A stretch of DNA of 48,309 bases, taken from positions 1 through 48,309 of the IMG/VR virus record IMGVR_UViG_3300034418_005372; one strand, 5' to 3'. The notes beneath the pieces were generated by a model, which made no database searches, was not told the origin of the DNA, and saw only the letters and a list, made by a program, of their open reading frames with translations. Position numbers and translations under genes: made by a program. Numbering within the stretch: the stretch's first letter is position 1; every line of letters starts with the position of its first letter. Positions 21,356 to 48,132 of the stretch are shown piece by piece. This DNA is from a virus.

Positions 21356-24300
21356 ATGGCAAAGAATAATAATGTACAAAATACAAGTTCTGCAGGAGGT
21401 GGAAGTTTTGATAAAAGTCTTAATGAAGATAATCAAGGCTTTGCTAAATCTCCTCAAGAATGGACACAAGCAAGAAATGCTGTAAACAATACAGTATCTG
21501 GAGATTTGTTTACATTAAGTAATGAATCTTCTAATTACTTATGTTCTGCTGTTCCTGATGGATATTCTATTATAGGTAAAATACGTTTATTAGGAGGTAT
21601 GTGGGCAATATTCTCTACAGATGATACTGACTCAGAGATAGGTGTATTTAATGAAGATAGATGTACTTATGAAAAATTAGTAAATGATGCTTGTCTTAAT
21701 TTCAAAACAACTAATTTAATTACAGGATCATCAAAAGAAAACTTTGATTGTAGCCGTCATATATACTGGGCAGATGGATTAAATCCAGATAGACATTTAA
21801 ATATAAATGATATACCTTATATCTCACAAGATGTACCAGAACCCGGTAATCCAGACTGTATAGTTTCTCAACCTATTACACCATTACAATTAGACTGTGA
21901 AAAAATTAGATTAGAACCTATTGTTGACAATCTTGCGTTTAAAGTAACTGAAGGTACTACAGCTGGTGAATTACTTAATGGTTCTTATTATGTAGCAGGT
22001 GCATACTTAAAGAATGGTGTTAGAGTTACTGATTACTCATTACCTTCAAATGTTGTAGGCTTATGGAAGCATGATAACCTAGGTTCATCTTTAGAAATTG
22101 AAGTAGTAAATATAGACAAAGATTATGACGAGTATCAACTTGTATTATTACAATTTGCAAACTTTCAAGGTCCTTTAGCATTTGTTGTAGGTCAATATAC
22201 TACAGATCAGAAAAGAATTACAATAACTTCTATTAATACAAAATGGGAACAGTTGCCTGAAGGTGAAGGTTCTATTTTAAGACGTAATCCTATTGCAGAT
22301 AAATCAGATGCTATTTATAAAGCAGCAGATTATTTAATGCGTGTAGGTCCTACAGATAAACTTGATTTTAATTATCAACCATTAGCTAATCAAATTACAG
22401 CTAAATGGGTTTCAGTTGAATATGATTCAGAATATTATAAAAATGGAGGTTATGAAACTGGATATATGCGTGATGAAGTATATCCGTTTTTTATAAGATG
22501 GGTATTTAACACTGGTGATAAATCAGCATCATATCATATACCTGGTAGAGCGGCATTGCCGGCAGATTTAACTTTAGCAGGTACACAAAACTTATTACCT
22601 ACTGAAAGTAATTCTTTAAAGAAATGGGAAGTATATAATACAGCAACAATAGATGCACCTTTTACACCATATACATTACCCGATGGTGGTAAAGTTATTG
22701 GTCAAGGTAAGATGTCATACTGGGAATCAACAGAAGAATATCCAGGAGATAAACCTGAAGTATGGGATGCGTTATGTGGTAAAAAAATAAGACATCACAA
22801 ATTTCCTGATAATGCATCAGATACAAGTGCTAATATGGTTACTAATCACTATGATCCTAATGATGGTTCTAAGATTAGAATTATGGCAGTACAGTTTGAT
22901 AATATTCAAGCACCTGTAGATAATGCTGGAAACCCTATTACTAATATTGTAGGTTATGAACTATTAAGAGGTTCAAGAGAAGGTAATAAAACAGTATTTG
23001 CAAAAGGTATGATTAATAACATGCGTGAATACTTTACGGATGGTGACTTTGATGATCCAAAATTTGCAAATGATACTTTACCTTTTAGAATTCTTGATGG
23101 TGATGGAAAACGTAAACTATATGCAAACTATCCTTTTAATCCAACAGGAGATGAGAGATTTTTGTCCCGTACTGAAACTGTTAATCAAGGTACGGCAAAT
23201 GATACAAATTTAGATCCTGATGACAATACAGATTCTAATAATAATCCATATCCTAAATATTATTTAGATGCGGATAATCCATATGAATCAGATTATGTAA
23301 GAAAAGATTTCTTTACTTTTCATTCACCTGAAACAAACTTTAGAGATCCGTTTTTATCAGCCAAAGAAATAAAAGTTTATGGTGAATTAAATGGTCAAGC
23401 ATTAGGTTCATTTGAATTTCCTGCAGATCATCCTAAACATAAGTTTATAGGTAATGGTGCTTTTTATACTTCAGTAATATTAGGTATTGGTTTTACATTA
23501 GTAAAAACAGCAGGTAGGAGAACTGTTGAAACACAAGGTATTAGATCACCATTAATAGGAGGTTTAACCGGTACATTACCTGGTGCTTTTAGTGCTTTTT
23601 TAGGTTACGCTCCAATTTTAGCAGCATCTTCTACAGCAAATGTTAGTGCTGCTGTAACAAAAACATTCTTAAACAACACGTCATTAGCTCCTATATTAGC
23701 AGGTATTAATCCTAATTTAATTTTAGATTCATCATTACTTACAATTAAAAGTACAGCTGCTATTGCTGGTGCAGATGGTGGAGAAACTCTTGAAAGACGT
23801 GAAGTATCAGATTGGGAAATGATACCAGATTGGATGAAACTTTTAGTAGGTGTTCCATCATTTTTAATGAATTTAGCAGAAGGTATTCAAAACTGGTTAG
23901 ATATTTTTTATGCGTTTACTTCTTATAAACAACACGCATTACAATATGTATCACATTGTTTCTATGATAAGTTTTTACCACCAGATGCTAATAACTTAAG
24001 AAGAGGTATTAAACGTTCTTTATACTTAGATAATCAATTACAAGATTTTGATAACCAGTATAGAGTAAATAACATTTATAGAATCCGTACAGTTGGTATA
24101 AATACTGAGGATGATATTGCACATACTAAAACTACGGATGATACACAAAAGACAATAACAGAAGCTTTTGAATCATATGGTATTCAACAAACAACGCAAG
24201 GTAAAACTTTTAACAAATACGTTGGAAGAACTTTTCCTACAACTGCTGCATCACATTATGTAGGATTAAAACAACCTTTCAAAAATCAATATGGTCAAAT

Positions 24301-26869
24301 ATCTGATATAATACAATTACCAGTATCTACTAAAATGACAGACAAAACTAAGACAAAGTCTGATGTAATGTTTAATGGAGATACATATATAGGAAGATAT
24401 ACAGAAAAGAACACAATGTACTTTTTCCATAATTGGTTAAAAGGTCAACCTGACGGAGCAGAGATTAATTATTTAGATTATAAAATGGTAGCTCATCCAA
24501 GATTCTGGATGGATACTGATTTATTTGATGTTAATGAGTTTATTACATCATTAGGTTCAGTTTTTAAATCAAAAGGTAATTCAAATGCACCAAGTGATTT
24601 TGATTTCTTTCAAGGCACAAGTTCTACAGCTAATTGTGGATGCGGGTCAGGACAAACTATTGACGCAGTAAATTGTAAATTAATTGCAGATTGCGGTGAT
24701 ATAAATGCTGGTGATTTAAATGATTTATGTGATTTACAACAAGATGTTGATGAGGCAATAAATTATGCAACATTCTTAGAAGATTTATTAGATTGGCAAA
24801 TTGAACATTGTAATGATTCTTCTTTTTCAGATCCAATTCCAGATCCTTTAAATTATCAACCTTGTCAAGAATGTATTGACTTACAAAGTGGAAGTAGACC
24901 TGTTACAAATGATTATAGCGGTTTTGGTTCTAACGGATGGAAGTTAGACAGTGAATGTGAACCAAAAGGTAAATGGAATAGAAGAATAAGAAAAGCTAGA
25001 AAAGCTATTGATAAAGCATTAGAAAAACTTAACAAAAAACAGAATAAAATTTATGATGATTATGTTGATTGTGCTCAAAGTGATGACGGATGGATAGCAG
25101 AATTATTTAGTGATGTAATATTTCCTAATAGAAAATATGCATTTGATAGAAAATTTTCAGCATTTGCTTTTGGTGTAAAAAATGCTTTTATGTATTTGTT
25201 TAACTCAGGTGTAAGAGATTTTTATGTTGAGTCTGAAGTAAACCTTGATTACAGAGACTATGGTGATAAAATAGATGAACAACATTATGACGCATATAGA
25301 TTTTCTGATCTTAGACAAATCTTTCATACAGATAGAATTAAAGTAGGTAACTACTATAAGTATGATTATAGTTTAAGTATTAGTAAATTATTTGCAGGTT
25401 TTATTTCATGGGGTAACGTACAACAAAGAACATATGATCCAACAATTGCAGAAACTTGCTATGTATATAGACCAGACCGTATTATATATTCTCTTCCTAC
25501 TAAAGATGAAAATAAAGCAGATTTTTGGACAGTCTATTTACCAAATAATTATGAAGATTTCAGCAGCCGTCCTACAGCTATTACAACAATAGGGCGTAAT
25601 GGTGTTATGATATTCTTTGAAAGTAAAAGTCCAATACAGTTTGCAGGTGTTGATCAATTACAGACAGATGGTGGTACTAAAATTACAATAGGTGATGGTG
25701 GATTATTTCAACAACCTAGACAACAGTTTACTAATGCTGATGGAGCATATCAATATGGTTCATGTCAAGACGGATTATCTGTAATTAATACACCAGGAGG
25801 AGTATACTATATATCTCAAGAACAAGGTAAAATATTTCAAGTAGGTGAAGGTTTAAAAGAAATATCTAACTTAGGATTAAAATGGTGGTTTGCTAAATAC
25901 CTACCTTATAAATTAACAGATTACTTTATCAATTTTGATATTACAAACAATCCTGTTGCGGGTATAGGATGTCAAACTATTTTTGATAATGAAAACCAAG
26001 TAGTATATTTCTGTAAAAAAGATTATGTACCAAGAGCAGATAAACTTCCTAAAATGAGTTATGATCCTGTACTAAATCAATTTTATTATAAACCGTTTTC
26101 AGTTAAAATACCAATTCAATTAGGTGATCCTATATATTTTGAAGATGCATCATGGACGGTTTCATTTGATCCTAAATACAATATTTGGGTATCATATCAT
26201 GATTGGCATCCTGACTTAGTTATACCTAGTAGAAAAACTTTTATGACTACTAAAAATAATTCAATATGGGTGCATAATGATGATTGTCAAAGCTATTGTA
26301 ATTTCTATGGTAAATATTACCCGTTTGAAGTTGAGTTTACTATACATAATCAAACTGAAGTATTTTCTATTAGAAATATAGTTTATTATTTAGAAGCTTA
26401 TAGATACAATGATAATTGTGATGATAGATTTCATATATTAGATGAGAACTTTAATGAAGCAATTGTATTTAACTCAGAGCAATGTTCAGGATTATTAAAA
26501 TTAAATTCTGCACCAAAAAATGCTCCAGATCAATTGATCACATATCCTCAAGTAAATATTGCAGATATTGATATAGTATTTCATAAAGAAGAACAAAAAT
26601 ATAGATTTAATCAATTCTGGGATATTACAAGAGACAGAGGTGAATTTAATCCTGCTGCAACACAAACGGTATTTAATACTGCAGCAAATGGTTATGTTAA
26701 AAATCTAAATCCTTTTTATTTAGATTATGCAAAAGCAGAGTTTGAAAGAAAGAAATTTAGACACGTTAAAAATTCAGTATTATTAAGAAAAACATTTAAT
26801 GATTCAAATAAAAATGTTAACTTAATAATTTCTTTAGCTATTCAAATGAACTTAAAATCTTCTAGATAA
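21356..26869 (+). CDS. Tail stabilisation / muzzle protein
   Basis: The 1837-residue protein corresponds to the very large tail protein that in crAss-like phages forms the distal muzzle and is distantly like the P22 gp10 stabilisation protein. Residues about 20-165 carry family strings (PQEWTQARNAVNNTVSG, WAIFSTDDTDSEIGVFNEDR, NLITGSSKENFDCSRHIYWA, GLNPDRHLNINDIPYI). A long hydrophobic stretch at about 698-775 (GAFYTSVILGIGFTLVKTAG) could be buried or membrane-active. Residues about 1092-1180 are Cys-rich (NCGCGSGQ, CQECID), and the last third is beta-propeller-like with many Trp and Tyr. Its stop overlaps the ATG of the first cargo gene by one base. Confidence 0.8.
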   Translation: MAKNNNVQNTSSAGGGSFDKSLNEDNQGFAKSPQEWTQARNAVNNTVSGDLFTLSNESSNYLCSAVPDGYSIIGKIRLLGGMWAIFSTDDTDSEIGVFNEDRCTYEKLVNDACLNFKTTNLITGSSKENFDCSRHIYWADGLNPDRHLNINDIPYISQDVPEPGNPDCIVSQPITPLQLDCEKIRLEPIVDNLAFKVTEGTTAGELLNGSYYVAGAYLKNGVRVTDYSLPSNVVGLWKHDNLGSSLEIEVVNIDKDYDEYQLVLLQFANFQGPLAFVVGQYTTDQKRITITSINTKWEQLPEGEGSILRRNPIADKSDAIYKAADYLMRVGPTDKLDFNYQPLANQITAKWVSVEYDSEYYKNGGYETGYMRDEVYPFFIRWVFNTGDKSASYHIPGRAALPADLTLAGTQNLLPTESNSLKKWEVYNTATIDAPFTPYTLPDGGKVIGQGKMSYWESTEEYPGDKPEVWDALCGKKIRHHKFPDNASDTSANMVTNHYDPNDGSKIRIMAVQFDNIQAPVDNAGNPITNIVGYELLRGSREGNKTVFAKGMINNMREYFTDGDFDDPKFANDTLPFRILDGDGKRKLYANYPFNPTGDERFLSRTETVNQGTANDTNLDPDDNTDSNNNPYPKYYLDADNPYESDYVRKDFFTFHSPETNFRDPFLSAKEIKVYGELNGQALGSFEFPADHPKHKFIGNGAFYTSVILGIGFTLVKTAGRRTVETQGIRSPLIGGLTGTLPGAFSAFLGYAPILAASSTANVSAAVTKTFLNNTSLAPILAGINPNLILDSSLLTIKSTAAIAGADGGETLERREVSDWEMIPDWMKLLVGVPSFLMNLAEGIQNWLDIFYAFTSYKQHALQYVSHCFYDKFLPPDANNLRRGIKRSLYLDNQLQDFDNQYRVNNIYRIRTVGINTEDDIAHTKTTDDTQKTITEAFESYGIQQTTQGKTFNKYVGRTFPTTAASHYVGLKQPFKNQYGQISDIIQLPVSTKMTDKTKTKSDVMFNGDTYIGRYTEKNTMYFFHNWLKGQPDGAEINYLDYKMVAHPRFWMDTDLFDVNEFITSLGSVFKSKGNSNAPSDFDFFQGTSSTANCGCGSGQTIDAVNCKLIADCGDINAGDLNDLCDLQQDVDEAINYATFLEDLLDWQIEHCNDSSFSDPIPDPLNYQPCQECIDLQSGSRPVTNDYSGFGSNGWKLDSECEPKGKWNRRIRKARKAIDKALEKLNKKQNKIYDDYVDCAQSDDGWIAELFSDVIFPNRKYAFDRKFSAFAFGVKNAFMYLFNSGVRDFYVESEVNLDYRDYGDKIDEQHYDAYRFSDLRQIFHTDRIKVGNYYKYDYSLSISKLFAGFISWGNVQQRTYDPTIAETCYVYRPDRIIYSLPTKDENKADFWTVYLPNNYEDFSSRPTAITTIGRNGVMIFFESKSPIQFAGVDQLQTDGGTKITIGDGGLFQQPRQQFTNADGAYQYGSCQDGLSVINTPGGVYYISQEQGKIFQVGEGLKEISNLGLKWWFAKYLPYKLTDYFINFDITNNPVAGIGCQTIFDNENQVVYFCKKDYVPRADKLPKMSYDPVLNQFYYKPFSVKIPIQLGDPIYFEDASWTVSFDPKYNIWVSYHDWHPDLVIPSRKTFMTTKNNSIWVHNDDCQSYCNFYGKYYPFEVEFTIHNQTEVFSIRNIVYYLEAYRYNDNCDDRFHILDENFNEAIVFNSEQCSGLLKLNSAPKNAPDQLITYPQVNIADIDIVFHKEEQKYRFNQFWDITRDRGEFNPAATQTVFNTAANGYVKNLNPFYLDYAKAEFERKKFRHVKNSVLLRKTFNDSNKNVNLIISLAIQMNLKSSR

Positions 26870-29800
26870 TGAAAGGTGAATTTAAATATACTAGACGTGA
26901 AGGTCTACCAGGAGGAGCAAATGAAATGAAACAATTTGCACAAGGAAAATTTTCAATTGATGGATATAAAAGATTTAGTCCTGATGTAAATAATCCGTTT
27001 AATATTATACCATCAGGAGATATCACCATGAAAGATGTAGACTTTCCTGTACACGGTGTAGATAACTTAGGAAACTCTCAAATAATGTATCCGGGTAATG
27101 ATTATAAATTTCCGGGTAGCACTGTATTTGAAACTCCTTTACATGATTTAGATGATTATGAAGAAGCAGAACTTACAGATGAACAGATTGCTGAATTACG
27201 TGCACAAGGAATTAAGGTAGAAGAAGTTGATAAATTTCCTGATGGAGGACCTGTAAATACATACAAATGGGGAGATGTTAATGAAGAAGCTTTTACAGGT
27301 GCTGCAGGTTTAAATTCTAAAAAATTTGATTTAGATGTTTATGGTTCATATCCTTTAAATGTAAGAGAAAGACAACATCAAAGAGAACAGGGTGTAAGAC
27401 TACCAGGTGATTATGAAGCAAATGCAAGTTATAGATTTAATCCTAAATTTAATATTAATGCGGGTGCATCATATAATTATGGTCATCCTTCTTATAATGT
27501 AAATACAAGATATAACACAGGCCCTTTTAATATAAATGCTGGTGCAAGTTTTAATAGAGGTCAATTAGCTTCATATAATTTAGGATTAGGTTATAATAAA
27601 GGTCCTTTTAATATAAATGCTGGTGCAGCATATAATTATGGTCAGCCTTCATATAATTTAGGATTAGGTTATAATAATGATAAAGTAAACTTTAATGCTG
27701 ATGTAAATTTTCAAAATGGAAATCCTTATTATAATGCAGGAGTTAACTTTTTATTTCAAGACGGTGGTGAGAAAAAGATTTCTTTTGAAGAATGGTATAA
27801 GACTGTACCTGAAAGTAAAAATGATACTATTCATTATGATTTAAGAAGAGCTTATGAATTAGCTCCTCAAGAAGAACTAGATGCTTTTGTAAATTCAGAT
27901 GCTCATTTGAGAAGTGTTTATAAACAAGCTGATGGTATATATGAGTTTGTAAAAAGAAAAGATCATCCTACAGTACAAAAAGAAATAGAGTGGTTTAATT
28001 CTCCAGATGCTGCTGAGTTTAGAGAAAATTATGAATTAGATGACTCTGGTGATTACTACAGATATATTCCTAAACAACAAACAGGTGGTGAGGAAAAAGA
28101 ACTTCCTAAAGCTCAAAGTTTAGGAGAAGTAAAAAGTGATTTATTTGGTCCAAAGCCCTCTTTAACTCCATTTACAGGTCGTGATTTAGAATATGAAAGA
28201 CAGTATGTAAAAGATAACTTTGGTAACCCTAATAGAGAAGTTGCTAATAAAGTTTTTGCTTACATGAAGTTAATTGAAGAAGCAGATGCAAAAGATGCTC
28301 AAAGAAAAGAAGAAGCTTACTTAAAAAAGTCTGTACCAGTTTCAGATAAAACAAAAGTTGAAACTGGTATTATTAAACTACCTTCTCCTCAAGAAAAAAT
28401 TGCAGCTGATCAACGTGCAAAAGCTAAAAAAGAGGAACAAGAGCAGTTTGAAAAAGAAGTATGGCAAGACTATAGTAAAATGTCAACTGCTGAAAAAGTT
28501 TTTGATAGAGCTCAAGCTTTTATGGTTGATCCATATGGGATGACAGCAAGATTTTTAACAGGAGATCAAGCTTATATTCCTGGAATGGGTAGAGGTTTAT
28601 TAAATCATGATAATCCTTTTTATGATAACTATCTTAGAGCTGTTGGTTATACACCAGGACAAATAGAACCATATGATATAGGTCATATAGTTAATCCAAT
28701 GTATTGGGGTACTTCAATTGGTAATAACATACGCAAAGGTAATTATGGTACAGCTGCTTTAGAGTCAGCTTTAACTTTTGCACCTTTCTTACCTAAAGGT
28801 ACAGTTAGTATAGGTAATGTAGCTAGAGGTACAAGAATGTTAGGAGATGATTTTACTAGAGCTGGTAAATATCTTACTGAAGGTCCTTTAAGAAATGCTT
28901 ATAAATTGAATTCTGAAGCTTTAAAAGAAGCACCTTTAAACACTCTATATCATGGAAGCAACAATCCTAATTTACAATTTGATGATATAATTTTTACAGA
29001 TGTAAATCCAAATGTTGGAGCAAGACCCGGTCAATTTAAACAGAGAGCATTAGCTAGTGGAGATCCTTTAGAGTTACCTGGTGGATTTTACACTAATGAT
29101 TTATCTACACCAAAGTTTATGGGTAATTTTGATTACAGATATAGTATGAATATCCCTGCTGATGCAAAAGTTTTTAAATGGACTTCTGGTATTTCTGATA
29201 ATATTTCTGTAAAAAAATTACAAGAATTAAAAAATAAAGGTTACGATATTATTGAAGGAAAAAATGTATTAGGACAAACTGAGTACATACCGTTAAATAA
29301 AGATATTATAAGTAATTGGAAAAAATTTGAAGCAGGTGCGCCTGAGTTAGAAGCAGCTAGAAATATAAGATTTAAAACAGAAACACCACATTGGTGGAAA
29401 GGTTATCCTAAACAACTATCAGGTTCTAGTCAAATTGAAAAACAATTTGGTTTATCAATAGATGAATTAAATACAAAAGGTATAGTTAAAAAACTTAAAG
29501 ATGTAGAAAAAAATGTAGACTTAGGAATAGGAAAATATGACCATACAAATTTAATTGAATATGAAAATGGATTACAGCTGCATACATATTCTAAACCTGG
29601 GAGTAAAGTAGATGATGTTATTCTTGTTTTTGATCCAAAAACAAATGAAAACATTGCTTACATGAGAAAATATTTAAAAGGAGATTTTCCTCCTAAAGGA
29701 GGTGTTTGGGAAGATTTGCCAACTAATGAGTGGCATATTAAAGCAGATATGCCTACAGTAAATAAAGACTTAGTTAAATTTGCTAATAAAGAATTAGAAA

Positions 29801-32800
29801 AAATTGTACAAGTTAAACCTATAAAGTATGAAAGTAACACTATTTCTACAGATGGTTTAAGATATTGGAATCAGCAACAAAAACATGGGTATTCTGCAAT
29901 AGATGACTTTACCACGCCTAGTGTAAGTGCTGCTGGTAAAGATGATTTATTTAAAAATCTTAAATATTCTAATGATGATAATGCTTTTGAAGCAGTGAAG
30001 TTTGCAACTAAAGAAGATGCTATTGAAGGTGCTGCAAGATTGGAAAACTTAATGAAAAACCAAGGATTAGATTATAAAGTAATCATTAATAACGATAATA
30101 CTTTAAAAATAGATTTACCTAAATTACAAAGAGCTTATTATAAGGGAGGTCCAGTATTTCAAGATGGTGGTGAATACATAGAAGCTAAACTAAGTCTTGA
30201 AGAAATTAAAGAATTAAAAAAACATGGATATCATATAGAAGAATATCAAGATGGTGGTGAGGAAAAAGATCCAGATCCTGTTACAATGCAAGAAGTTACA
30301 ACAACACCATTATCAAGATTTTATGGAGAATATGATACTCAAAATCCTTATACTGATTTCTTCAGAAGTAAGAAAGATAAGTATTTGAGTAGAGGGGATA
30401 TGGGTTTACAAAAATTGTTTAATATTAATGAACGTAATTTTCCTGAAGCTGAGATTAATAGAATCTATGATGAGTATCAATATAATAGAAACAACTATGC
30501 TATAGAACAATTTGCTAAAGAAAATAATATTGATTTAACAGATAGAGAGTCTATAATGAATAATCCTGCTAATGCTAAAGTACTTTCTAAAGCAATGGCT
30601 AATTCAAAGTATGGTAAATATTTGCAACCATCACTTTGGGCAAGAACTAAAGCAGGAGCAGTATCTGCAGCTAATGCTTTATTAGATGGTCCTCAAGGAA
30701 TATATGGTCCAACATTTACACCAGACATTAAAGGATTAACAACTGCTGAAGAATATGAATATTATTATCCAAATAGTACTTTACAAAAGGTAGGAAATGT
30801 AGCTGATGTACTTTCTTTTGTAGATATACTAGGTGTACCTCTTATGAATCAATTAACTGATAATAGAGATTATGCAGAGAACCCTTCTACATTAGGAGAG
30901 ATAGCTTCTGGTACATTAAATGCAAGAACTTCTCCTATGGCTGCTTCAGTACCTAGTTTAGCATTAGCACCAGCAGGTATACTAGGAGCACCTGATGCAA
31001 TAAGTTTAGGTTTAAAAGGATTAGGTAAAGTTGGTAAAGTTGCAGATGATGCTGTAGAATTATTAGCTAATAATTTTACTAAACAACTACCAGGTTCACC
31101 TAACATTTTAAATAATCCTTTTATAGAATCTAGAAATAGTTTATCAAATGCTACATCAGGTACTAGTAGTTTTTTAAGTGAACTATTAGGAGAACTAACT
31201 CAAGGTTCATTAAATAGAAAAAAAATTGAAGAAGGTAATCAATGGTTACAAGAGTGGATAAATCATCCTAGCACTCAATGGAAAATTCATAATGATTTAA
31301 ATAAAGTAAGAAAACAATATTCAGATTTTTATCCAAAAAATTCAAGTGCACTTACAGGGGCTAATGAACTAGCTGACTTAATAGAAATACAGTCAAGAAT
31401 TTTTAACCCTAATAGTAAAGAATATAGTCTGTTAAAACAATTTAAAGATAATTTAGATCTGTATACTAAAGTGTTAGGATTTAATAGAAATAAATTTATA
31501 AAACCTATGCATGTTGGAAATTGGGGAGTAAGTTACCAACATAGATTTCATCCTGAAAGAAGACAAGAATTTCTTGATGATCCAACTAAAATTCCTGATA
31601 GATATGGTAGTTATATTTCTAGAACTCCTAATATGAGTCCTGAAGATAGAGTAAGTACTACAATTCATGAAGGTACTCATGATTGGATTAGCGAAGAAGC
31701 TTTTAAATTACCGGGAGGAATGCAAGATTTATCTTTAAAATACACAGATCCTGAAATTAAAAAAGATTATTTTCAGTATAGAAAATTAAGAGACTTTGGT
31801 GAAGATCCTGATATTGTGATGGGAAAAGAAAAAGCTTATCAAGCTTATTTGGCAGAACCAACGGAAATGCATGCTAGGATAATGGAATTAAGACACCATT
31901 TAGGTATAAAACCTGATGATGTAATAGATGATGACTATGTAAAAAAAGTAGTAGAATATATAAAATCTGGTAATTCTCCTATTGACGGTGAAGGATTTTT
32001 ACGTGTGTTAGGAAAAGATAATGAAACACAAGCTAAAGGATTAAAAGAATTATTTAATGGATTTTGGGCAGCGGCTCCTATAACAATTGGTGTAGGTGCA
32101 GGATTAATGGATAATAAAAAAATAGGAGGTGAAACTGAACTTACTAAATATCAAACTAAAGGTGAAGTAAAAAATAGAAAAGCAGAATGGGAAAGATATG
32201 AAAAAGAATTAAGTATGCCTAAAATAGTTGCTAAGTCTAAATACTTACAAGAGTTATTAGCAGCAAAACAAGAATGGGAAAAAGCTCAAACTAATAAGGT
32301 AGAAAGTTCTTATATGCCTATTGAAGCTAGAATGAATAAACTTGATCCTAGAAATAACCCGTTTATTCAAAGCTCTCTACCTGATGCAGAATATTATAAA
32401 CCTGAGAGAAAAGTTATAGACAGATATATACCAGAAGACGTAACTCAAGGTAATAATGCTGGTAAATATAATAATCCAAATTTATATGAAAATGTTATAA
32501 AAGACAATTATATACCAGAAAATTATAATTTTAATCAACCTAATAATGCTGGTAAATATAATAATCCTGATTTATATGAAAATGCTGCAGAAGAAAAAAC
32601 ACAACCAATAGAAAAAGTACAAGCAGATGCTTCAAATATTAATTTACAAGATTATACAGCATTATTAAATCCTTTAAATAATCCTATATTAAAGGCAGCA
32701 TTAAATGTAGATCCGAGTTATTATGCTCCAAAAAAAGTTAGTAAATATAATAATCCTAATTTATATGAAGATCCTCAATTACATAAAGTTTCAGATGATT

Positions 32801-33942
32801 CATTTAATTGGTCTGATTTATTTAATATTGAAGAATCAATGGGAGGTAAACATATGAGTCCTGCACAAGGTGTATTAGACGCAATGCATCAATATGGTGA
32901 TTTAGCAAGTAACTATTTAACAAGACAAAGTTTAAAAGGTAATAAAGAAGCTGAAGTTAAAACTAAATCTTTGTTTGAATTAGGTAATGAAGAAATTACT
33001 GATGGTCAAGAGTCTGTATTAACAGAACCGTTAAAATTTAGTGAAGACTTTGAAATAAAAGATAAACATTTTAATCCATTAGGTAGAAGGGTGTATAGAC
33101 AAGAATATTTAGATTTGAATAATTTAAAGTTTGGTTATAGAAATAGAGGTAATTTTAATCCAATAAATACTCAAACTGGAGCTATAACAAGCTTTCATCC
33201 TTTTGAAAAAAAGAATAATTATTTAAAAAGATTTAAATCAGTTTCAGATAATGCAACGTTTATAGGAATTAATCCAAACGGTGAATTTAAATCAGGTTCA
33301 ATTTCTGATTTTGACTCAAATGATTTTATTACAAGAACTGTATCCAATGTGATAGATGACTTTTTATTAAATAATGATGGAACTGTAAAATTAGATAAAC
33401 GTAATAAAAGCAATCCTAATGATCTGGTTCCTGTTGTAAAAGTTATTGAAAATGGTAAAGAAAAGTTAGGTAGTTTAAATTTACTCGCTAAAGATAAAAA
33501 AGATGCTATAAATGAGTATGGTCCAATACAAGGAGGTAGAGTAATTTTAAAAGGTGCTGATGGTTCTCATGTATTTGTTTCAGGTTCTATACAAAATGTA
33601 TATGAAGCTTTTAAGGAAATGAGAGAAAGAACTAATAAGCCTGTTACAATTATTACTTTAGATAACGGTGCTTATAATATGGGTATTAGAACTAAAGATA
33701 ATAGACTTACAACACAAGATTTACAAGCATACGATAAACAACATGTTGGTGGAGGTAACTTTTTATATTTAATGCCGAATGATAATCAATCTTTTTACCC
33801 GCAAAATGATTTTGATTATAATAAATTGATACCTCAGTCTGAAAAGTTTAAAACAGGTGGTGAATATTTTGATGCTGAGTTAACACCAGAAGAAATCAAC
33901 TGGTATCTTAGTCAAGGATATAAATTAGATATCTTGGAATAA
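26869..33942 (+). CDS. Giant multi-domain cargo protein (ART-like, zincin)
   Basis: This 2357-residue protein is probably stored in the virion and ejected. Residues 1-95 show the crAss cargo signature (DVNNPFNIIPSGDITM, MYPGNDYKFPG). Residues 97-127 hold the first copy of a helical Gly-Gly module. Residues 182-297 are Asn/Gly/Tyr repeats resembling outer-membrane beta-hairpins. Residues about 690-825 look like an ADP-ribosyltransferase: YHGS (H695), GGFYT (Y741), TEYIPL (E805). A second module copy lies at 1097-1130. Residues 1595-1675 have a zincin motif HEGTH (1600-1604) and a possible third ligand in AEPTEMHAR (E1663 or E1666). Residues 1865-1968 carry three KYNNPNLYE repeats. The conserved C-terminal domain includes LDNGAYNMGIR and GGGNFLYLM, and the last 31 residues are a third module copy. 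Enzyme roles are inference. Confidence 0.7.
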   Translation: MKGEFKYTRREGLPGGANEMKQFAQGKFSIDGYKRFSPDVNNPFNIIPSGDITMKDVDFPVHGVDNLGNSQIMYPGNDYKFPGSTVFETPLHDLDDYEEAELTDEQIAELRAQGIKVEEVDKFPDGGPVNTYKWGDVNEEAFTGAAGLNSKKFDLDVYGSYPLNVRERQHQREQGVRLPGDYEANASYRFNPKFNINAGASYNYGHPSYNVNTRYNTGPFNINAGASFNRGQLASYNLGLGYNKGPFNINAGAAYNYGQPSYNLGLGYNNDKVNFNADVNFQNGNPYYNAGVNFLFQDGGEKKISFEEWYKTVPESKNDTIHYDLRRAYELAPQEELDAFVNSDAHLRSVYKQADGIYEFVKRKDHPTVQKEIEWFNSPDAAEFRENYELDDSGDYYRYIPKQQTGGEEKELPKAQSLGEVKSDLFGPKPSLTPFTGRDLEYERQYVKDNFGNPNREVANKVFAYMKLIEEADAKDAQRKEEAYLKKSVPVSDKTKVETGIIKLPSPQEKIAADQRAKAKKEEQEQFEKEVWQDYSKMSTAEKVFDRAQAFMVDPYGMTARFLTGDQAYIPGMGRGLLNHDNPFYDNYLRAVGYTPGQIEPYDIGHIVNPMYWGTSIGNNIRKGNYGTAALESALTFAPFLPKGTVSIGNVARGTRMLGDDFTRAGKYLTEGPLRNAYKLNSEALKEAPLNTLYHGSNNPNLQFDDIIFTDVNPNVGARPGQFKQRALASGDPLELPGGFYTNDLSTPKFMGNFDYRYSMNIPADAKVFKWTSGISDNISVKKLQELKNKGYDIIEGKNVLGQTEYIPLNKDIISNWKKFEAGAPELEAARNIRFKTETPHWWKGYPKQLSGSSQIEKQFGLSIDELNTKGIVKKLKDVEKNVDLGIGKYDHTNLIEYENGLQLHTYSKPGSKVDDVILVFDPKTNENIAYMRKYLKGDFPPKGGVWEDLPTNEWHIKADMPTVNKDLVKFANKELEKIVQVKPIKYESNTISTDGLRYWNQQQKHGYSAIDDFTTPSVSAAGKDDLFKNLKYSNDDNAFEAVKFATKEDAIEGAARLENLMKNQGLDYKVIINNDNTLKIDLPKLQRAYYKGGPVFQDGGEYIEAKLSLEEIKELKKHGYHIEEYQDGGEEKDPDPVTMQEVTTTPLSRFYGEYDTQNPYTDFFRSKKDKYLSRGDMGLQKLFNINERNFPEAEINRIYDEYQYNRNNYAIEQFAKENNIDLTDRESIMNNPANAKVLSKAMANSKYGKYLQPSLWARTKAGAVSAANALLDGPQGIYGPTFTPDIKGLTTAEEYEYYYPNSTLQKVGNVADVLSFVDILGVPLMNQLTDNRDYAENPSTLGEIASGTLNARTSPMAASVPSLALAPAGILGAPDAISLGLKGLGKVGKVADDAVELLANNFTKQLPGSPNILNNPFIESRNSLSNATSGTSSFLSELLGELTQGSLNRKKIEEGNQWLQEWINHPSTQWKIHNDLNKVRKQYSDFYPKNSSALTGANELADLIEIQSRIFNPNSKEYSLLKQFKDNLDLYTKVLGFNRNKFIKPMHVGNWGVSYQHRFHPERRQEFLDDPTKIPDRYGSYISRTPNMSPEDRVSTTIHEGTHDWISEEAFKLPGGMQDLSLKYTDPEIKKDYFQYRKLRDFGEDPDIVMGKEKAYQAYLAEPTEMHARIMELRHHLGIKPDDVIDDDYVKKVVEYIKSGNSPIDGEGFLRVLGKDNETQAKGLKELFNGFWAAAPITIGVGAGLMDNKKIGGETELTKYQTKGEVKNRKAEWERYEKELSMPKIVAKSKYLQELLAAKQEWEKAQTNKVESSYMPIEARMNKLDPRNNPFIQSSLPDAEYYKPERKVIDRYIPEDVTQGNNAGKYNNPNLYENVIKDNYIPENYNFNQPNNAGKYNNPDLYENAAEEKTQPIEKVQADASNINLQDYTALLNPLNNPILKAALNVDPSYYAPKKVSKYNNPNLYEDPQLHKVSDDSFNWSDLFNIEESMGGKHMSPAQGVLDAMHQYGDLASNYLTRQSLKGNKEAEVKTKSLFELGNEEITDGQESVLTEPLKFSEDFEIKDKHFNPLGRRVYRQEYLDLNNLKFGYRNRGNFNPINTQTGAITSFHPFEKKNNYLKRFKSVSDNATFIGINPNGEFKSGSISDFDSNDFITRTVSNVIDDFLLNNDGTVKLDKRNKSNPNDLVPVVKVIENGKEKLGSLNLLAKDKKDAINEYGPIQGGRVILKGADGSHVFVSGSIQNVYEAFKEMRERTNKPVTIITLDNGAYNMGIRTKDNRLTTQDLQAYDKQHVGGGNFLYLMPNDNQSFYPQNDFDYNKLIPQSEKFKTGGEYFDAELTPEEINWYLSQGYKLDILE
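27412..27759 (+). repeat. Coding repeats, beta-hairpin-like Asn/Gly/Tyr units
   Basis: Units of about 26-27 codons repeat within the cargo gene. CCTTTTAATATAAATGCTGG occurs near 27524 and 27604, and TTTAGGATTAGGTTATAATA near 27580 and 27658. The encoded residues 182-297 alternate between strand-like stretches (FNINAGASYNYG, SYNLGLGYN), nine in all. The repeats are conserved at both DNA and protein level, pointing to recent duplication. Confidence 0.75.
32461..32793 (+). repeat. Coding repeats, GKYNNPNLYE units
   Basis: Three copies of GGTAAATATAATAATCC-type sequence encode G/S-KYNNP(N/D)LYE(N/D) at residues 1865, 1895 and 1958 of the cargo protein. The first two are 30 codons apart, and the third follows a related LNPLNNP segment that echoes LDPRNNPF near residue 1824. 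They are Pro/Asn-rich and probably disordered linkers or short binding motifs. Confidence 0.7.
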
Positions 33943-42309: not shown

Positions 42310-45300
42310 ATGGCTGTTGAAAATAATTTAAATGAGGAAGAACCAAAGTCAAATGCTAATTTAGGTTTTGATTTAGGTCAATATATACAAAGTAAATATG
42401 TAGCTCCTCCATCAGAAGAGTCTACTCAATCTGTACCAAGACCTGCTCCAAGAATAGATATAAATGCAGAATTAGGTTACAATCCAGCAGAAGAACTTAG
42501 TAAGTATATGGCAGAAAACTTTAAAACAAGTATTGATGCCGGAATGATGGATTTACAGGATCTAGAAGAAATCAATAAGAATATGAATAAAGATCCATAT
42601 TCTATTGATGCAACTAGAACTATGTTACAAAATCAATCTACATATAATCTTCCAGATGATCCTTTTGGAACATTTAAATCTATGATGGGTGACTTTAGGG
42701 ATCCTAATGAACAGAACACATTTTATAAAAGATATTATGAACACCCTAAGTTTGATCAATTAGGGTTTAGTCCATTTAGAAATAATGAAGAGTATTATAA
42801 TTCTAATTCTAGTGGATGGGATGACTTTAGAAGAGCTGGTGGTGAAATGCTTACTTTAGCTGGAATAGGTCTTGCTGAAAACTTTGGGTTATCAGATTTA
42901 GAAGATATTACAACTTCTAAAAGATATGCTGAAGCAGCAGCTATTGGTACATCATCTAGAAAAGGTTTAGGTGCATTTGCTACAAATACATTTTTAAATT
43001 CAGGATATACAGTAGGATTAATTTTAGGTTTTGCTGCTGAAGAAGCATTACTTATTGGTGCTGAAGCATTAGGTGCTACATTATCTCCTGCAACAGGTGG
43101 TACATCATTAGGATTAACTGGAGCTGCAGCAACAAGACAAGCTTTCTCAATAGGTAAGTTTGGTAAAAATTTAGCTAAGGCTTATGAAGCAGCAATGCGT
43201 ACTAGAAAATTAGTAGATAAAGTACAAGATGCATCTAAAGCTAGAAAGTTTTTTAATGCTACTATGAATTTTCTAAATCCTCTTGAAAATACAACAGATT
43301 TCTTTAAAACTATAAATCAATTAGATGATTTATCAAAGTTAACAAAAACGGTAAGAGGTGTTGGTGCATTTATTAAAGATACAAGAGGTGTTAGAGCAGC
43401 GTGGAATGAAGCTGCGTTAGAAGCTAATATGGTGCAAGATGAAATGCAACGTAACTTATTAGCTGAGTTCAAAGCTAGAAATAATGGTAGATCACCTAAT
43501 AAAGAAGAAGCTGCTAAAATGGCTGCTACTATTAAACAAGCTACATCAAGTACTGCTTTACATAATGCTGTTTTAATTTTAGGAACTAATAAACTTACAT
43601 TAGGTCCTCTGCTAAGACCTATGAATAGAGCATTAGGTGGTGGTATATATTCTTTAGGTAAAGGTGCTGGTAATTTTATTTATACAGCAAGTAAAAAAGG
43701 AGTACCTGAAGCATATAAGCTTTTATCAAAAAATTATGCAAAAAGAAGTTTACAATTATTAAGACATCCTAAAGCTCTCCTACAAAGACAGTTATTATAC
43801 AGTACTGATAACGTAATGGAAGGTATCCAAGAGGTATCACAAGAAGCTATTGCAGATTGGCAAAAAGAATACCATACTGCAATGTTTGAAGGTAATGAAG
43901 CCAGAGGTGCTTATTATGATTTCTTAGGAAGAAGTATAGAAAAACAAATGAGTCCAGAAGGATTTGAAGTTTTTATGTCTGGTTTCTTAATGCAAAAATT
44001 TGTAAGTCCTTTAACTATTGCGGGTGGGAAAGTATTTGATAAACAAAATTATTCAGATTTAAGATTATTTGCTACTGATCGTGAAGCTTATTATAAAGCA
44101 AAAAAAGATAGACAGAAGCAAGATGAAGATACTGTAGCAAAACTTAATGATTTTTACAAAAATAATACTGAGTATTTAGCAGGTGACCTTATGAATCTTG
44201 TAAGACAAGGTGAGTATGCAGCAATGCTTAAAAATGCAGAATCTATAGGTGATGCTAAATCATGGCATGATATTAAAGACTCATCACGTTTTGATCATTT
44301 TATGAATCTTATACGTCATAATAGATTAGACGGACATTTAGATTTACTAAAAGGGTTAAAAGATTTAACAGCAGATGAGGTTATGGAAGAATACAAAATG
44401 GATCTAAATACTTTCCATGATGTAATTGACAAGTCTGTTGAAAGAGCTGAATCTATACAAAATACTTATAAAGGCTTGCAGGCAAAAATGCCTAGTCCTG
44501 TAAATTATAAACAGTACAAATATGGTAGTCCTGAGTACATGGACGCTTTTAGATCTCATAAAGCTTGGAATGATGTTATAGAATCAATAGCATTTAATAA
44601 GTTTGCTTTTCAAAGAAGTTTGGAAAGAGCTGAATCTATTGTAGGAAATGCTCAAAATAATTTAGGTTTAAAGAATGTTGCTTTTTCAGAGTTCAGTGCT
44701 ATGTTTGGTAAAACATCTTTGAAAAAAGAGTTAGACACTTTGAGTCTTGAAATAAGTACTTTAGAAAAAAGTGCTATTTTAACTGATGATATTAAAGAAC
44801 AGTTAAAAGACAAAAAAGAAAGAATGAAACTTTTAAAAGAGTTTAATTCAAATGTAGATAATGTATTAAGCAGAAGTGCAAATGAAAAGTTTGATGATCC
44901 TGTACAATATGAATCATTATTAAAGGCATATACAGATTACGTAACTTACTTAGCTAAAAAAAGCGGAGATCCTATAGATTCAAGTGAAATTGAAAGTTCT
45001 TTAACTGAAGTTATTGATTATTACAAGTTAAAAGGAAGAACTGAAGGTATGGTTGAAATTGTTAATTTTATGATTGATCCTGAAGGTTTTAATCAATTAT
45101 TTAAAAGACAAGTAGACATATACCAAAATGCTGAGTCTTCTATGAAAGAAGAAATAAAAAAATCATATGATGCTTATAAAAAAGGAAATAAACTTCATAA
45201 TGATTTATTGAATGCATTAGCTGATATGGGAGTTTTTGTTAGACTTGAAGATTTACAAGCATTAAAAGATGAAGGTATATTTCCTGAACATTTCTTTTAT

Positions 45301-48132
45301 GTTAGTCCTGAAAAATCTGGTATTGAACTAGCACATAATACAAAAGAATATCAAGACCTGGTAGAGTTATTCAGTGAGTATTATGAAATTAAAGAAGGTA
45401 TTGATACAGTCCCTTTTAAAGAAAGATACAGTATTTATGATATCAAATCTAGAGCTAAAAAGAAAAATGATCAAAGAACTTATGAAGATCTAGCTACACA
45501 ATTTGGATTTGACGCTTCACAAGAAACTACTGAAGTTCCTTTAAAGCAAGTTTTACAATCTATAATTGACAGTAAGTTTGCTGATGAGAGAGAAAAAGCT
45601 TTAGCACAAGTTTTATTAAAAAGTGCAACAGATACTGATGTAGTTGTTTTTTCTAAGACTAATACTACACCTGCTGAATATAATGTTGGTGATGACAAAG
45701 TTATTGTTAATGCTACATTTAGTGCTAATGAATATAAACAAGGTAGGAGTAATGCACCTCTTGAAGCATTTATCCTACATGGTGAAATACAAAGAAAGTT
45801 AAGTGAGGCTCTAGATCAAGATGCTGATTTCAAATCTGATTTAGAAGATTTATTAAAAGACGCTAAAGAAGCATGGTCTAAGTTAACAGCACAAGAAAAA
45901 GCAGAGTATTCAGAATCATCTGCATTAAGAGGATTAGATAACATAAATGATTTTGCAGTTGCTGCAATGACTAACTTAAGATTTCAAAAGTTCTTAGGTA
46001 CTGTTAAAAGCACAACTCAAACAAATACTACTCCGTTATGGAAAAGATTTGTGGATACTATTCTTAAAAGAATCTCATCAATATTAAAAGTAAAAACTGT
46101 AAATGGTACTGTACTTAATGCTACATTAGGTATAGTTACAACCAAAATAGATCCTGCAGGATTTACACCAAACACACAAGCTCCAAAGACTAATGGTACT
46201 CAAACTGCTGTTACAAGAGATGAAAGTATTGCTTCTATAAGTGCAAATCATCCTGAATTATATAATGCACTTGTTGATGCATTTATAGAATATAATGAAG
46301 GAAGAATTGAAAGAGGTGAAGATTCTGTTATTCCAGAAAATACTTCTAGAAAAGACATTGCTAAATTACCATTCTTTAAACAGTTTGTTAGCAATAGAGC
46401 ATTTGTCAAACCTGAAAAAATCTTTAAAGATTATAACGCTAAGCTAGGTGTTAAACCAGGTGCAGGTACAACAACTACAACAGGAAGTGTTCCACTTACA
46501 ATAACAAAAGCTGTTAGACAGCAGTTACTAGATTTAGGATATAGTAAAACTGATATTGATAAAATGAAACCTGAAGAAGCTCAGGAGATTATTAAGAATC
46601 AAACTACTAAACCTAAAGCAACAGATAGTAAAGCTGGCGTAGAAAATGTTCTAACAGATTCTCAAAAAGAAAATTTAGAAAAAGCTAAAAAAGGTGAAAA
46701 AGCAGAACCTGCAAAAGTTAAGTTTAATACTATTGAAGAATTAATTAATCATGCTCAATCTTTAGCAGGTACTGTACATAATGTAAACGGACTTAAGGTA
46801 GAATTCGTTGATTATAAAGGTGAAATTCTAACAGGTGCTGGACAAAGAGTTTTTGTAAAAGTATTAATAAACGGCATTCCTGTAACATTTTATAGTTCAA
46901 CGGGATCTGGAAAAAAAGCTTTACAAGAAGGAATATTTTATCCAACATTAGGTATTGAATCTGATGAAAGATATAATGGCACCTGGATAAATAAGATAGA
47001 CGGTGTTGAGATGGCATCATATTACAATTCTCCAGCATTAGCTTTAGTAGGGGCTTTTATAGATAGTCAATTTGGAAACACAAATACTTATGCTTCTGAA
47101 ATAAATGAAAAGACTCTAGATATTCAGAATCCTAAAAGAGAATGGTTGACTAAAGAGCAAGCTTTAGATATAAGGAAAGAGTATAATAAGGATTTTTTAA
47201 ATAGTGGTAGAGAGACTTTTTCTAATAACGAGAAAAGTAAAGTAGTTCAAGCTTTTAAAGATTTAGTTCAAGAAATTGAAAACGCTACTGCAAATATTAA
47301 AGATGATTCAGGTAAACGTAATATACCTAAAGCTCCTGCTGAAGAAGTAACTTATATACCTCCAAAATCAGGTATTCCTACTCAAGATGTTTTAAGTAAA
47401 TTAAAAGATTTAGGTTATACACAATCTGAAATTAATGCATTATCTAATTCTAAAAAATATGATTATGCAAATGAAAACCTTACTAAACAAGAAAGAGTAG
47501 AATGGGAAGCATATTTAAATGAACAGCTTGATTCTGTTGCTGAAGAAGAAGTTATAATGGAAGAAGCTAAAGCTCAAATAAATGAATTCATTGATTCTGC
47601 TACTACTTATGAAGAATGGTTAGACGTTAGAGATAAAGTAAGAGGTCCTGAATTTGATAATGTACGTGAAGAAAGTAACTATTCTAATCAAAACATTAAA
47701 GATTTATTGGATGAAAAACTTAAACGTTTAGCATTTATTGCTAACTTTACTGATATCAAAGTAGGTGAGTTTGTAGGTGTTGAAAGAACAAATAAAGATG
47801 GTGTTAAATATGTTGCTATAGTGCAAGTTATAAAGAAAACCAAAGATAAAATTACTCTACAATATCAGAACGCAGACGGTAATACTTTTGAAATAAATAA
47901 GAAAGATTTAAAAGATACTAAGATGTATAGAAGCACAAAAGCATTAGATAATGTAGACATTGATGAAGGACCAAATGTAGATCCAATAGACAATGATGCT
48001 GCACAAGGTACAAAACAAACTGTAGAAGATTTTGCAGACACTACTAAAGAAGATGAAAGTATTGCTGATTCAAAAAGTATTGATGAGGTAAATGATGATT
48101 TTATTAACGCATTCAAAAATAATTGTAAATAA
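42310..48132 (+). CDS. Giant cargo protein with decayed metallopeptidase-like domain
   Basis: The 1940-residue protein has no RNA polymerase DxDGD motif and is best seen as another ejected cargo protein. Residues 1-180 are disordered then helical. About 218-282 is hydrophobic and Ala/Gly-rich (LNSGYTVGLILGFAAEEALL), possibly membrane-inserting. Residues 560-1000 are long helices. Near 1138-1250 the arrangement LEAFILHGEIQRKL, then INDFAVAAMTNLRFQKF, then PLWKRFVDTILKRIS matches metallopeptidases of polyvalent phage proteins, but the HExxH site reads HGEIQ (1157-1161). Two LxDLGYxxxxI helical motifs lie at 1406-1430 and 1698-1722, flanking a beta domain at about 1478-1595. The C-terminus is acidic. 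The stop overlaps the next ATG. Confidence 0.62.
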   Translation: MAVENNLNEEEPKSNANLGFDLGQYIQSKYVAPPSEESTQSVPRPAPRIDINAELGYNPAEELSKYMAENFKTSIDAGMMDLQDLEEINKNMNKDPYSIDATRTMLQNQSTYNLPDDPFGTFKSMMGDFRDPNEQNTFYKRYYEHPKFDQLGFSPFRNNEEYYNSNSSGWDDFRRAGGEMLTLAGIGLAENFGLSDLEDITTSKRYAEAAAIGTSSRKGLGAFATNTFLNSGYTVGLILGFAAEEALLIGAEALGATLSPATGGTSLGLTGAAATRQAFSIGKFGKNLAKAYEAAMRTRKLVDKVQDASKARKFFNATMNFLNPLENTTDFFKTINQLDDLSKLTKTVRGVGAFIKDTRGVRAAWNEAALEANMVQDEMQRNLLAEFKARNNGRSPNKEEAAKMAATIKQATSSTALHNAVLILGTNKLTLGPLLRPMNRALGGGIYSLGKGAGNFIYTASKKGVPEAYKLLSKNYAKRSLQLLRHPKALLQRQLLYSTDNVMEGIQEVSQEAIADWQKEYHTAMFEGNEARGAYYDFLGRSIEKQMSPEGFEVFMSGFLMQKFVSPLTIAGGKVFDKQNYSDLRLFATDREAYYKAKKDRQKQDEDTVAKLNDFYKNNTEYLAGDLMNLVRQGEYAAMLKNAESIGDAKSWHDIKDSSRFDHFMNLIRHNRLDGHLDLLKGLKDLTADEVMEEYKMDLNTFHDVIDKSVERAESIQNTYKGLQAKMPSPVNYKQYKYGSPEYMDAFRSHKAWNDVIESIAFNKFAFQRSLERAESIVGNAQNNLGLKNVAFSEFSAMFGKTSLKKELDTLSLEISTLEKSAILTDDIKEQLKDKKERMKLLKEFNSNVDNVLSRSANEKFDDPVQYESLLKAYTDYVTYLAKKSGDPIDSSEIESSLTEVIDYYKLKGRTEGMVEIVNFMIDPEGFNQLFKRQVDIYQNAESSMKEEIKKSYDAYKKGNKLHNDLLNALADMGVFVRLEDLQALKDEGIFPEHFFYVSPEKSGIELAHNTKEYQDLVELFSEYYEIKEGIDTVPFKERYSIYDIKSRAKKKNDQRTYEDLATQFGFDASQETTEVPLKQVLQSIIDSKFADEREKALAQVLLKSATDTDVVVFSKTNTTPAEYNVGDDKVIVNATFSANEYKQGRSNAPLEAFILHGEIQRKLSEALDQDADFKSDLEDLLKDAKEAWSKLTAQEKAEYSESSALRGLDNINDFAVAAMTNLRFQKFLGTVKSTTQTNTTPLWKRFVDTILKRISSILKVKTVNGTVLNATLGIVTTKIDPAGFTPNTQAPKTNGTQTAVTRDESIASISANHPELYNALVDAFIEYNEGRIERGEDSVIPENTSRKDIAKLPFFKQFVSNRAFVKPEKIFKDYNAKLGVKPGAGTTTTTGSVPLTITKAVRQQLLDLGYSKTDIDKMKPEEAQEIIKNQTTKPKATDSKAGVENVLTDSQKENLEKAKKGEKAEPAKVKFNTIEELINHAQSLAGTVHNVNGLKVEFVDYKGEILTGAGQRVFVKVLINGIPVTFYSSTGSGKKALQEGIFYPTLGIESDERYNGTWINKIDGVEMASYYNSPALALVGAFIDSQFGNTNTYASEINEKTLDIQNPKREWLTKEQALDIRKEYNKDFLNSGRETFSNNEKSKVVQAFKDLVQEIENATANIKDDSGKRNIPKAPAEEVTYIPPKSGIPTQDVLSKLKDLGYTQSEINALSNSKKYDYANENLTKQERVEWEAYLNEQLDSVAEEEVIMEEAKAQINEFIDSATTYEEWLDVRDKVRGPEFDNVREESNYSNQNIKDLLDEKLKRLAFIANFTDIKVGEFVGVERTNKDGVKYVAIVQVIKKTKDKITLQYQNADGNTFEINKKDLKDTKMYRSTKALDNVDIDEGPNVDPIDNDAAQGTKQTVEDFADTTKEDESIADSKSIDEVNDDFINAFKNNCK

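What the first reader, a model, noticed from the sequence alone, without database searches (positions are those of the whole stretch)
28936..29345. ADP-ribosyltransferase-like domain inside a virion cargo protein
Seen: residues about 690-825 of the 2357-aa cargo protein run LYHGS (H695), then GGFYTNDLSTPKFMG (Y741), MNIPADAKVFKW, GYDIIEG and TEYIPLNKDII (E805). Known: H-Y-E class ADP-ribosyltransferases have this order of His, Tyr and Glu in three strands, and ART domains are among those described in polyvalent proteins of phages. Inference: the phage may inject an enzyme that modifies a host target (for instance host RNA polymerase or translation factors) at the start of infection, comparable in idea to T4 Alt. 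I do not know of a described ART in crAss virions.
Basis: partly seen in the sequence, partly recalled or inferred. Interest (0 to 1): 0.68.

Follow-up and report, generated by a model that had tools for sequence, protein, structure and literature searches.

The report
ADP-ribosyltransferase module in crassvirus cargo-region protein
A very large protein encoded beside the tail-tip (muzzle) gene of a crAss-like phage contains a real but divergent ADP-ribosyltransferase domain, a tag-transferring enzyme that such phages probably inject to alter a host protein; it is a new member of a known class of phage weapons.

Summary
Window 28936-29345 is residues 690-826 of a 2357-aa ORF (26869-33942), with H695, Y741 and E805 as stated. 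The domain is an ADP-ribosyltransferase (ART) of the H-Y-E type. It aligns with a family of about 20 phage ART modules inside giant "PLxRFG/DarB-like" proteins (tblastn 7e-5; profile-profile 98.6%). His and Tyr are invariant in 23 sequences, Glu is kept in 19. Eight of the 23 match Pfam ART-PolyVal; the window sequence alone matches nothing. A moderate-confidence model resembles ART structures almost exclusively (49 of 50 best rows).

The gene lies between the crassvirus muzzle gene and the cargo genes. In a relative the next gene is a clear C1 cargo homologue, so this is an extra gene, not C1. Only the ART module (57-61% identical) and one short segment are shared between the three phages' proteins: probably a swapped effector cassette, under purifying selection.

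Packaging, NAD use and target are inferred. Novelty is modest: polyvalent ARTs are described, and classical ART-PolyVal domains already sit in deposited Crassvirales proteins, one of them a virion-RNA-polymerase-type protein. T4 Alt is an analogue only; it is of the R-S-E clade.

The parts
26869..33942 (+). 2357-aa multidomain protein that carries the ART module; gene directly downstream of the muzzle gene (overlapping start)
   Evidence: ORF list
28936..29364 (+). ART domain core, residues 690-832
   Evidence: alignments A1/A6, AlphaFold2 models, fold comparison, profile comparison
28951..28953 (+). H695 codon, predicted strand-1 His of the active site (LYHGS)
   Evidence: invariant in 23/23
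29089..29091 (+). Y741 codon, predicted strand-2 Tyr (GGFYTND)
   Evidence: invariant in 23/23
29281..29283 (+). E805 codon, predicted catalytic Glu (TEYIPL)
   Evidence: Glu in 19/23, Gln in L010/L011/L013/L014
28627..29448 (+). whole conserved module (residues ~587-860), the only long stretch shared with the cargo-region proteins of L001 and L002
   Evidence: blastp 57.5% and 61.0% identity; the rest of the proteins is not detectably similar apart from a ~50-aa segment
31666..31680 (+). HEGTH (residues 1600-1604), zincin-type metallopeptidase motif elsewhere in the same protein
   Evidence: motif scan; no Pfam or PDB sequence match, so motif only
21356..26869 (+). crassvirus muzzle protein, upstream neighbour
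   Evidence: Pfam PF25731 crAss_MUZ 3.7e-25
42310..48132 (+). 1940-aa protein, distant relative of the gp47-type region of the two related contigs; marks the far side of the cargo locus
   Evidence: phmmer 6.5e-4 and 9e-5 to L001_15174/L002_12078; L001_15174 matches crAss001 gp47 at 1.7e-20

Best explanation
The domain is an H-Y-E-type mono-ADP-ribosyltransferase module in a large multidomain (polyvalent-type) protein encoded at the cargo locus of a crassvirus. The protein is most likely packaged and injected together with the virion's RNA-polymerase-associated proteins. In the host cell H695 and Y741 would hold NAD+ and E805 would drive transfer of ADP-ribose to a host target, which would favour the start of infection by altering a host machine or blunting a defence. 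Shown here: homology to ART-PolyVal through intermediates, conserved H/Y/E, ART-like predicted fold, purifying selection, gene position, a module shared by otherwise unalignable proteins. Inferred: packaging, injection, NAD use, target. T4 Alt is a functional analogue only.
For: Distant copies in giant PLxRFG/DarB-like phage proteins, tblastn 7e-5. Profile of the three crAss-type sequences against the 20 others: 98.6% probability, E 1.2e-15, 117 columns, H, Y and E in register. 8 of 23 family members hit PF18760 ART-PolyVal, best 7e-4. Family profile against four ART-PolyVal sequences: score 33.6 against a best of 20.1 in 100 column shuffles. H and Y invariant, E in 19/23. AlphaFold2 pLDDT 71, pTM 0.67; 49 of the 50 best VIA rows are ART folds (NatT, diphtheria-type, MbcT, ParT, RES, cholix, PARP), Z up to 6.5 at 4.0 A over 108 residues, and the other row is a phage pre-ejectosome protein. 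BFVD matches at 5e-7 to 6e-4 include Salmonella phage 7-11 and PspYZU01 proteins. Gene order muzzle - ART protein - C1 homologue (L002), with a gp47-type protein further on (L001). The LASTA homologue is fused to transglycosylase and methylase domains. dN/dS 0.25-0.35.
Against: No direct Pfam, PHROGs or PDB sequence match for the window sequence itself. Foldseek against the PDB gives nothing below E 0.08 and Z stays under 8. In the crAss-type members the stretch after GGFY is seven residues shorter and lacks the A..YA residues of the relatives; F750 is a candidate for the second aromatic. Four relatives carry Gln in place of Glu. Nothing shows packaging: crAss001 has no such gene between gp44 and gp45.
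Confidence: 0.68

Rival explanations
1. Same enzyme, but the target is a host defence component rather than transcription or translation: an anti-defence ART (in the manner of the anti-CRISPR ART AcrIF11) or an NAD-consuming activity against NAD-based defence.
For: The best Foldseek PDB row for the second model is 6kyf, an anti-CRISPR protein (E 0.088; that it is an ART is from my own knowledge). The relatives are annotated DarB-like antirestriction and carry a methylase domain. A crassvirus brings its own RNA polymerase, which lessens the need for an Alt-like change of host RNA polymerase (inference).
Against: 6kyf is a weak match (TM 0.34-0.36) and not separable from other ARTs. No target information exists. 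'DarB-like' is an annotation of the giant protein, not of the ART module.
Confidence: 0.3
2. Degenerate ART: the fold is kept but catalysis is lost, and the module serves as a binding or packaging domain.
For: Shortened segment after the conserved Tyr in the crAss-type members and Glu-to-Gln in one related group.
Against: H, GGFY and E are all retained in the three crAss-type copies, and the module is the best conserved part of otherwise unalignable proteins.
Confidence: 0.15
3. The ART protein is not virion cargo but a late-expressed intracellular or tail-associated protein; it would act on the host during assembly, or be structural.
For: The N-terminal part has beta-repeats with a sub-threshold YadA-anchor-like match (8e-4). 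PspYZU01 carries the ART as a small stand-alone gene. crAss001 lacks the gene.
Against: Position directly after the muzzle gene and before cargo-type genes in three divergent phages, and the same ART-in-giant-protein arrangement in phages whose giant proteins are read as virion-borne polyvalent proteins (PMC5512222, PMC9503650).
Confidence: 0.2
4. Not an ART: a chance resemblance of short motifs.
For: No direct family hit for the window sequence; moderate model confidence.
Against: Homology chain and shuffle controls and the near-uniform ART list of structural matches.
Confidence: 0.04

Closest known systems
ART modules of giant PLxRFG/DarB-like proteins of Klebsiella phages LASTA, SJM3 and SopranoGao, of Aeromonas phage phiARM81mr, and of Salmonella phage 7-11 (488-aa protein)
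   Same: Homologous over ~117-130 aa with H, GGFY, G.TEY and NK/DK motifs; embedded in larger phage proteins
   Different: About 22-31% identity; the crAss-type module has a 13-residue insertion before GGFY and lacks seven residues after it; different partner domains
Pfam PF18760 ART-PolyVal (polyvalent-protein ARTs, Iyer et al. 2017)
   Same: H in strand 1, Y in strand 2, same C-terminal pattern (GYD.V ... E..V.N..QIKS); found in giant phage proteins
   Different: Window sequence gives no PF18760 match; linked only through intermediates; acidic residue is E, where the described prototype clade has D
ART-PolyVal at the end of the gp47-type 'RNA-polymerase subunit' of crassvirus cr85_1 (QOR59483.1) and of the zincin-fused RNAP-associated protein of ctcc615
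   Same: ART on a protein of the crassvirus cargo/RNA-polymerase group
   Different: Classical ART-PolyVal at the C-terminus of a core cargo protein; here a divergent ART in a separate extra gene after the muzzle gene
Phage T4 Alt
   Same: Idea: head-packaged ART acting at the start of infection
   Different: R-S-E clade, not H-Y-E/H-Y-D; no sequence relation

Membership tests
ART superfamily, H-Y-E class | His, Tyr and Glu in this order in the core strands, conserved in the family | tested here: met
   H and Y 23/23, E 19/23; in the model H16 lies in strand 13-18, Y62 at strand 61-62, E126 in strand 125-129
ART superfamily, H-Y-E class | ART split beta-sandwich fold | tested here: inconclusive
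   Strongly leaning to met: 49 of 50 best VIA rows are ART folds of several subfamilies, but Z at most 6.5 and model pLDDT 71
ART superfamily, H-Y-E class | NAD+-dependent ADP-ribose transfer or NAD hydrolysis | not testable with these tools
   needs an assay
Pfam PF18760 ART-PolyVal | Direct profile match above the curated cut-off | tested here: not met
   No match for the window
Pfam PF18760 ART-PolyVal | Homology through intermediates | tested here: met
   8 of 23 family members match PF18760, best 7e-4; family profile against ART-PolyVal sequences beats 100 of 100 column shuffles
Tox-ART-HYD2 clade (polyvalent ARTs of Iyer et al. 2017) | H-Y-D active site | tested here: not met
   E805 where the clade is described with Asp
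Phage polyvalent proteins | Several unrelated effector domains in one polypeptide | tested here: inconclusive
   ART plus an HExxH motif at residue 1600; the zincin domain is not confirmed by Pfam or PDB
Phage polyvalent proteins | Encoded among virion genes, packaged and injected | tested here: inconclusive
   Among virion genes: met. Packaged and injected: not testable here
T4 Alt/VIP2 family | R-S-E active site | tested here: not met
   H-Y-E residues; clade definition from PMC5512222
Crassvirus cargo protein C1 (gp45) | Sequence homology to crAss001 gp45 | tested here: not met
   The 2357-aa protein has no match to gp45; in L002 the C1 homologue is the next gene, 2.7e-20

The most novel reading that the evidence does not exclude
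The module defines an unrecognised subfamily of virion-delivered ARTs, shared by swapping between crassviruses, that modifies a host target not known for any ART; it may be released from its 2357-aa carrier by the carrier's own zincin-type protease or by cleavage at the repeated aromatic-xx-GG segments.
Probability: 0.15. Interest if true: 0.7.

Novelty: new member of a known kind. Interest (0 to 1): 0.4.

Why it matters
Crassviruses are the most abundant viruses of the human gut (PMC10172136), and what they inject besides RNA polymerase and ejection proteins is largely unknown. A defined ART module at the cargo locus gives a concrete, assayable candidate effector. The three related proteins suggest that this locus takes up effector cassettes while its neighbours diverge, which points to where other injected effectors should be sought. 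The class itself (ARTs in polyvalent phage proteins) is already described, so the surprise is limited.

Tried and rejected
Direct Pfam, PHROGs, NCBIfam and PDB sequence searches with the window protein gave no ART match. The putative zincin region gave no Pfam or PDB match either. PF18760 searched in the whole window record found nothing, so no second, classical ART was detected in the window. Two scans of 84,980 bacterial and archaeal species genomes found no relative; these are limited to short peptide patterns. Close relatives of the crAss-type form are rare: only two other contigs found in IMG/VR. Plasmids gave one weak match, E 0.04. One search used a hand-written consensus of phage ART modules as a search query only; it led to loci L031-L035. 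The idea that the ART protein is the gp45/C1 cargo protein was rejected. One search failed and was rerun; part failed and was rerun. The cyanophage A4 pre-ejectosome and phi14:2 RNA polymerase papers are not in the library. Residue-level geometry of the pocket could not be measured because model coordinates are not exposed. Literature searches for ART in crAss-like phages returned nothing on the point.

Full report
What was checked. The ORF 26869-33942 (+) encodes 2357 aa. The reported stretch is residues 690-826 and reads as described; H695, Y741 and E805 are exact. No shuffle of the protein out of 2000 reproduces the motif order.

Homology. The window sequence alone finds no ART family in Pfam or PHROGs and no PDB relative. 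Translated searches find two phage contigs, L001 and L002, at 66-70% identity. In annotated phages they find ART-bearing stretches of giant proteins called PLxRFG or DarB-like in Klebsiella phages (tblastn 7e-5), a putative virion structural protein of Aeromonas phage phiARM81mr and a giant protein of Arthrobacter phage Atuin. Further scans widened this to a 23-sequence alignment. In it H16, G17, G59, G60, Y62, G118, G123 and K132 (numbering of the 153-aa query; H695, G696, G738, G739, Y741, G797, G802, K811) are invariant, and E805 is kept in 19 of 23, Gln replacing it in the other four.

Link to known ARTs. Eight of the 23 match PF18760 ART-PolyVal (best 7e-4) and one matches the diphtheria-type catalytic family weakly (0.044). 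The three crAss-type sequences against the other twenty give a profile-profile probability of 98.6% over 117 columns. The family against four ART-PolyVal sequences scores 33.6 where 100 column shuffles reach at most 20.1; the aligned part (41 columns) is the C-terminal stretch around the acidic residue. The crAss-type three alone do not reach ART-PolyVal (score 20.2), so the link runs through the LASTA-type intermediates.

Fold. Two AlphaFold2 models (pLDDT 68 and 71, pTM 0.65 and 0.67) were made. Foldseek against the PDB is weak (best E 0.09-0.12), but the VIA second look on the second model gives ART folds in 49 of 50 rows: NatT 6.5, diphtheria-type 6.4, MbcT 6.3, ParT 6.1, RES 6.0, cholix 5.6, PARP 5.1; the remaining row is the cyanophage A4 pre-ejectosome. 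These Z values lie under 8, so the fold alone would not settle it; with the homology the case is strong. The viral structure library returns the same phage relatives at 5e-7 to 6e-4, and lower down an entry named PolyVal ADP-Ribosyltransferase of crAss-like virus ctelJ1 (0.03). In the crAss-type module the stretch after GGFY is seven residues shorter than in relatives, and a 13-residue insertion precedes it.

Gene context. The upstream neighbour, whose stop overlaps the start, is the crassvirus muzzle protein (PF25731, 3.7e-25); terminase, portal and major head protein matches lie upstream. In crAss001 the order is gp44 muzzle, gp45 C1, gp46 C2, gp47 RNA-polymerase subunit; gp45, gp46, gp47, gp49 and gp50 are in the virion by mass spectrometry (PMC10172136). 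In L002 the order is muzzle (2e-20), ART protein, C1 homologue (2.7e-20); in L001 it is muzzle, ART protein, two proteins, gp47 homologue (1.7e-20). The window's 1940-aa protein at 42310 is distantly related to the L001 and L002 counterparts; C1 itself was not identified in the window. So the ART protein is an additional gene at the head of the cargo locus. Packaging is a reasonable inference but not shown.

Modularity. Between the window and L001/L002 the ART module (residues ~587-860) is 57-61% identical, while the rest of the proteins is not detectably similar except for a ~50-aa segment that is N-terminal in the window and C-terminal in L001. The muzzle and one further virion protein are only 22-32% identical. 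The module has therefore been exchanged or is under unusual constraint; dN/dS is 0.25-0.35.

Known and new. ARTs are the commonest protein-modifying domains of polyvalent proteins, which are thought to be packaged and injected (PMC5512222; PMC9503650). Classical ART-PolyVal domains are present in deposited Crassvirales genomes: at the end of the RNA-polymerase subunit of cr85_1 (2.4e-22), in the zincin-fused protein of ctcc615 (2.2e-16) and in cr130_1 (7.8e-27), and in a second ORF of the L001 phage. I found no paper that discusses them. What is new here is a divergent subfamily, not reached by Pfam or PHROGs from the crAss side, in an extra gene at the cargo locus. Alt of T4 is of the R-S-E clade and only analogous.

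Verdict (my estimates). ART fold: about 0.95. Active H-Y-E enzyme: about 0.8. Injected with the virion: about 0.75. The target is unknown; host transcription or translation and host defence are both open.

Noticed in passing
window 26869-33942, residues 125, 298, 405, 1092, 1099, 1128, 2329; L002 ORF 3551-7270: Short aromatic-xx-GG segments recur in the ART-bearing proteins (window 7 against 1.6 expected in shuffles, L002 11 against 1.0); linker, packaging tag or cleavage site is open.
   Followed up: partly
window residues ~97-121, ~1100-1125 and ~2330-2357 of the 2357-aa protein: A ~25-aa element of the form Y..A.L[ST].E[EQ]I..L...G[YI].[IV] occurs three times in the protein, one copy at its very C-terminus.
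   Followed up: partly
window 31666-31680: HEGTH with a downstream LAEPTEMHARI segment suggests a zincin-type protease in the same protein; crAss001 gp47 has an HExxH too.
   Followed up: partly
L029 ORF from 12739 (1947 aa), phage of L001: The related phage carries a classical ART-PolyVal (PF18760), apparently interrupted by a long insert, in a protein with weak similarity to crAss001 gp49.
   Followed up: partly
L029 from base 1 with the end of L001 (ORF from L001:15174): The gp47-type protein of the L001 phage appears to be over 4600 aa, about twice crAss001 gp47, with stretches similar to both gp47 and gp50.
   Followed up: no
window 21356-26869; L001 2-4240 and 4240-5106: The muzzle protein is one 1837-aa ORF in the window; the related phage has its C-terminal ~200 residues as a separate ORF.
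   Followed up: no
window residues ~190-295 of the 2357-aa protein: Tandem beta-rich repeats (NINAGASYNYG...) near the N-terminus, with a sub-threshold YadA-anchor match (8e-4).
   Followed up: no
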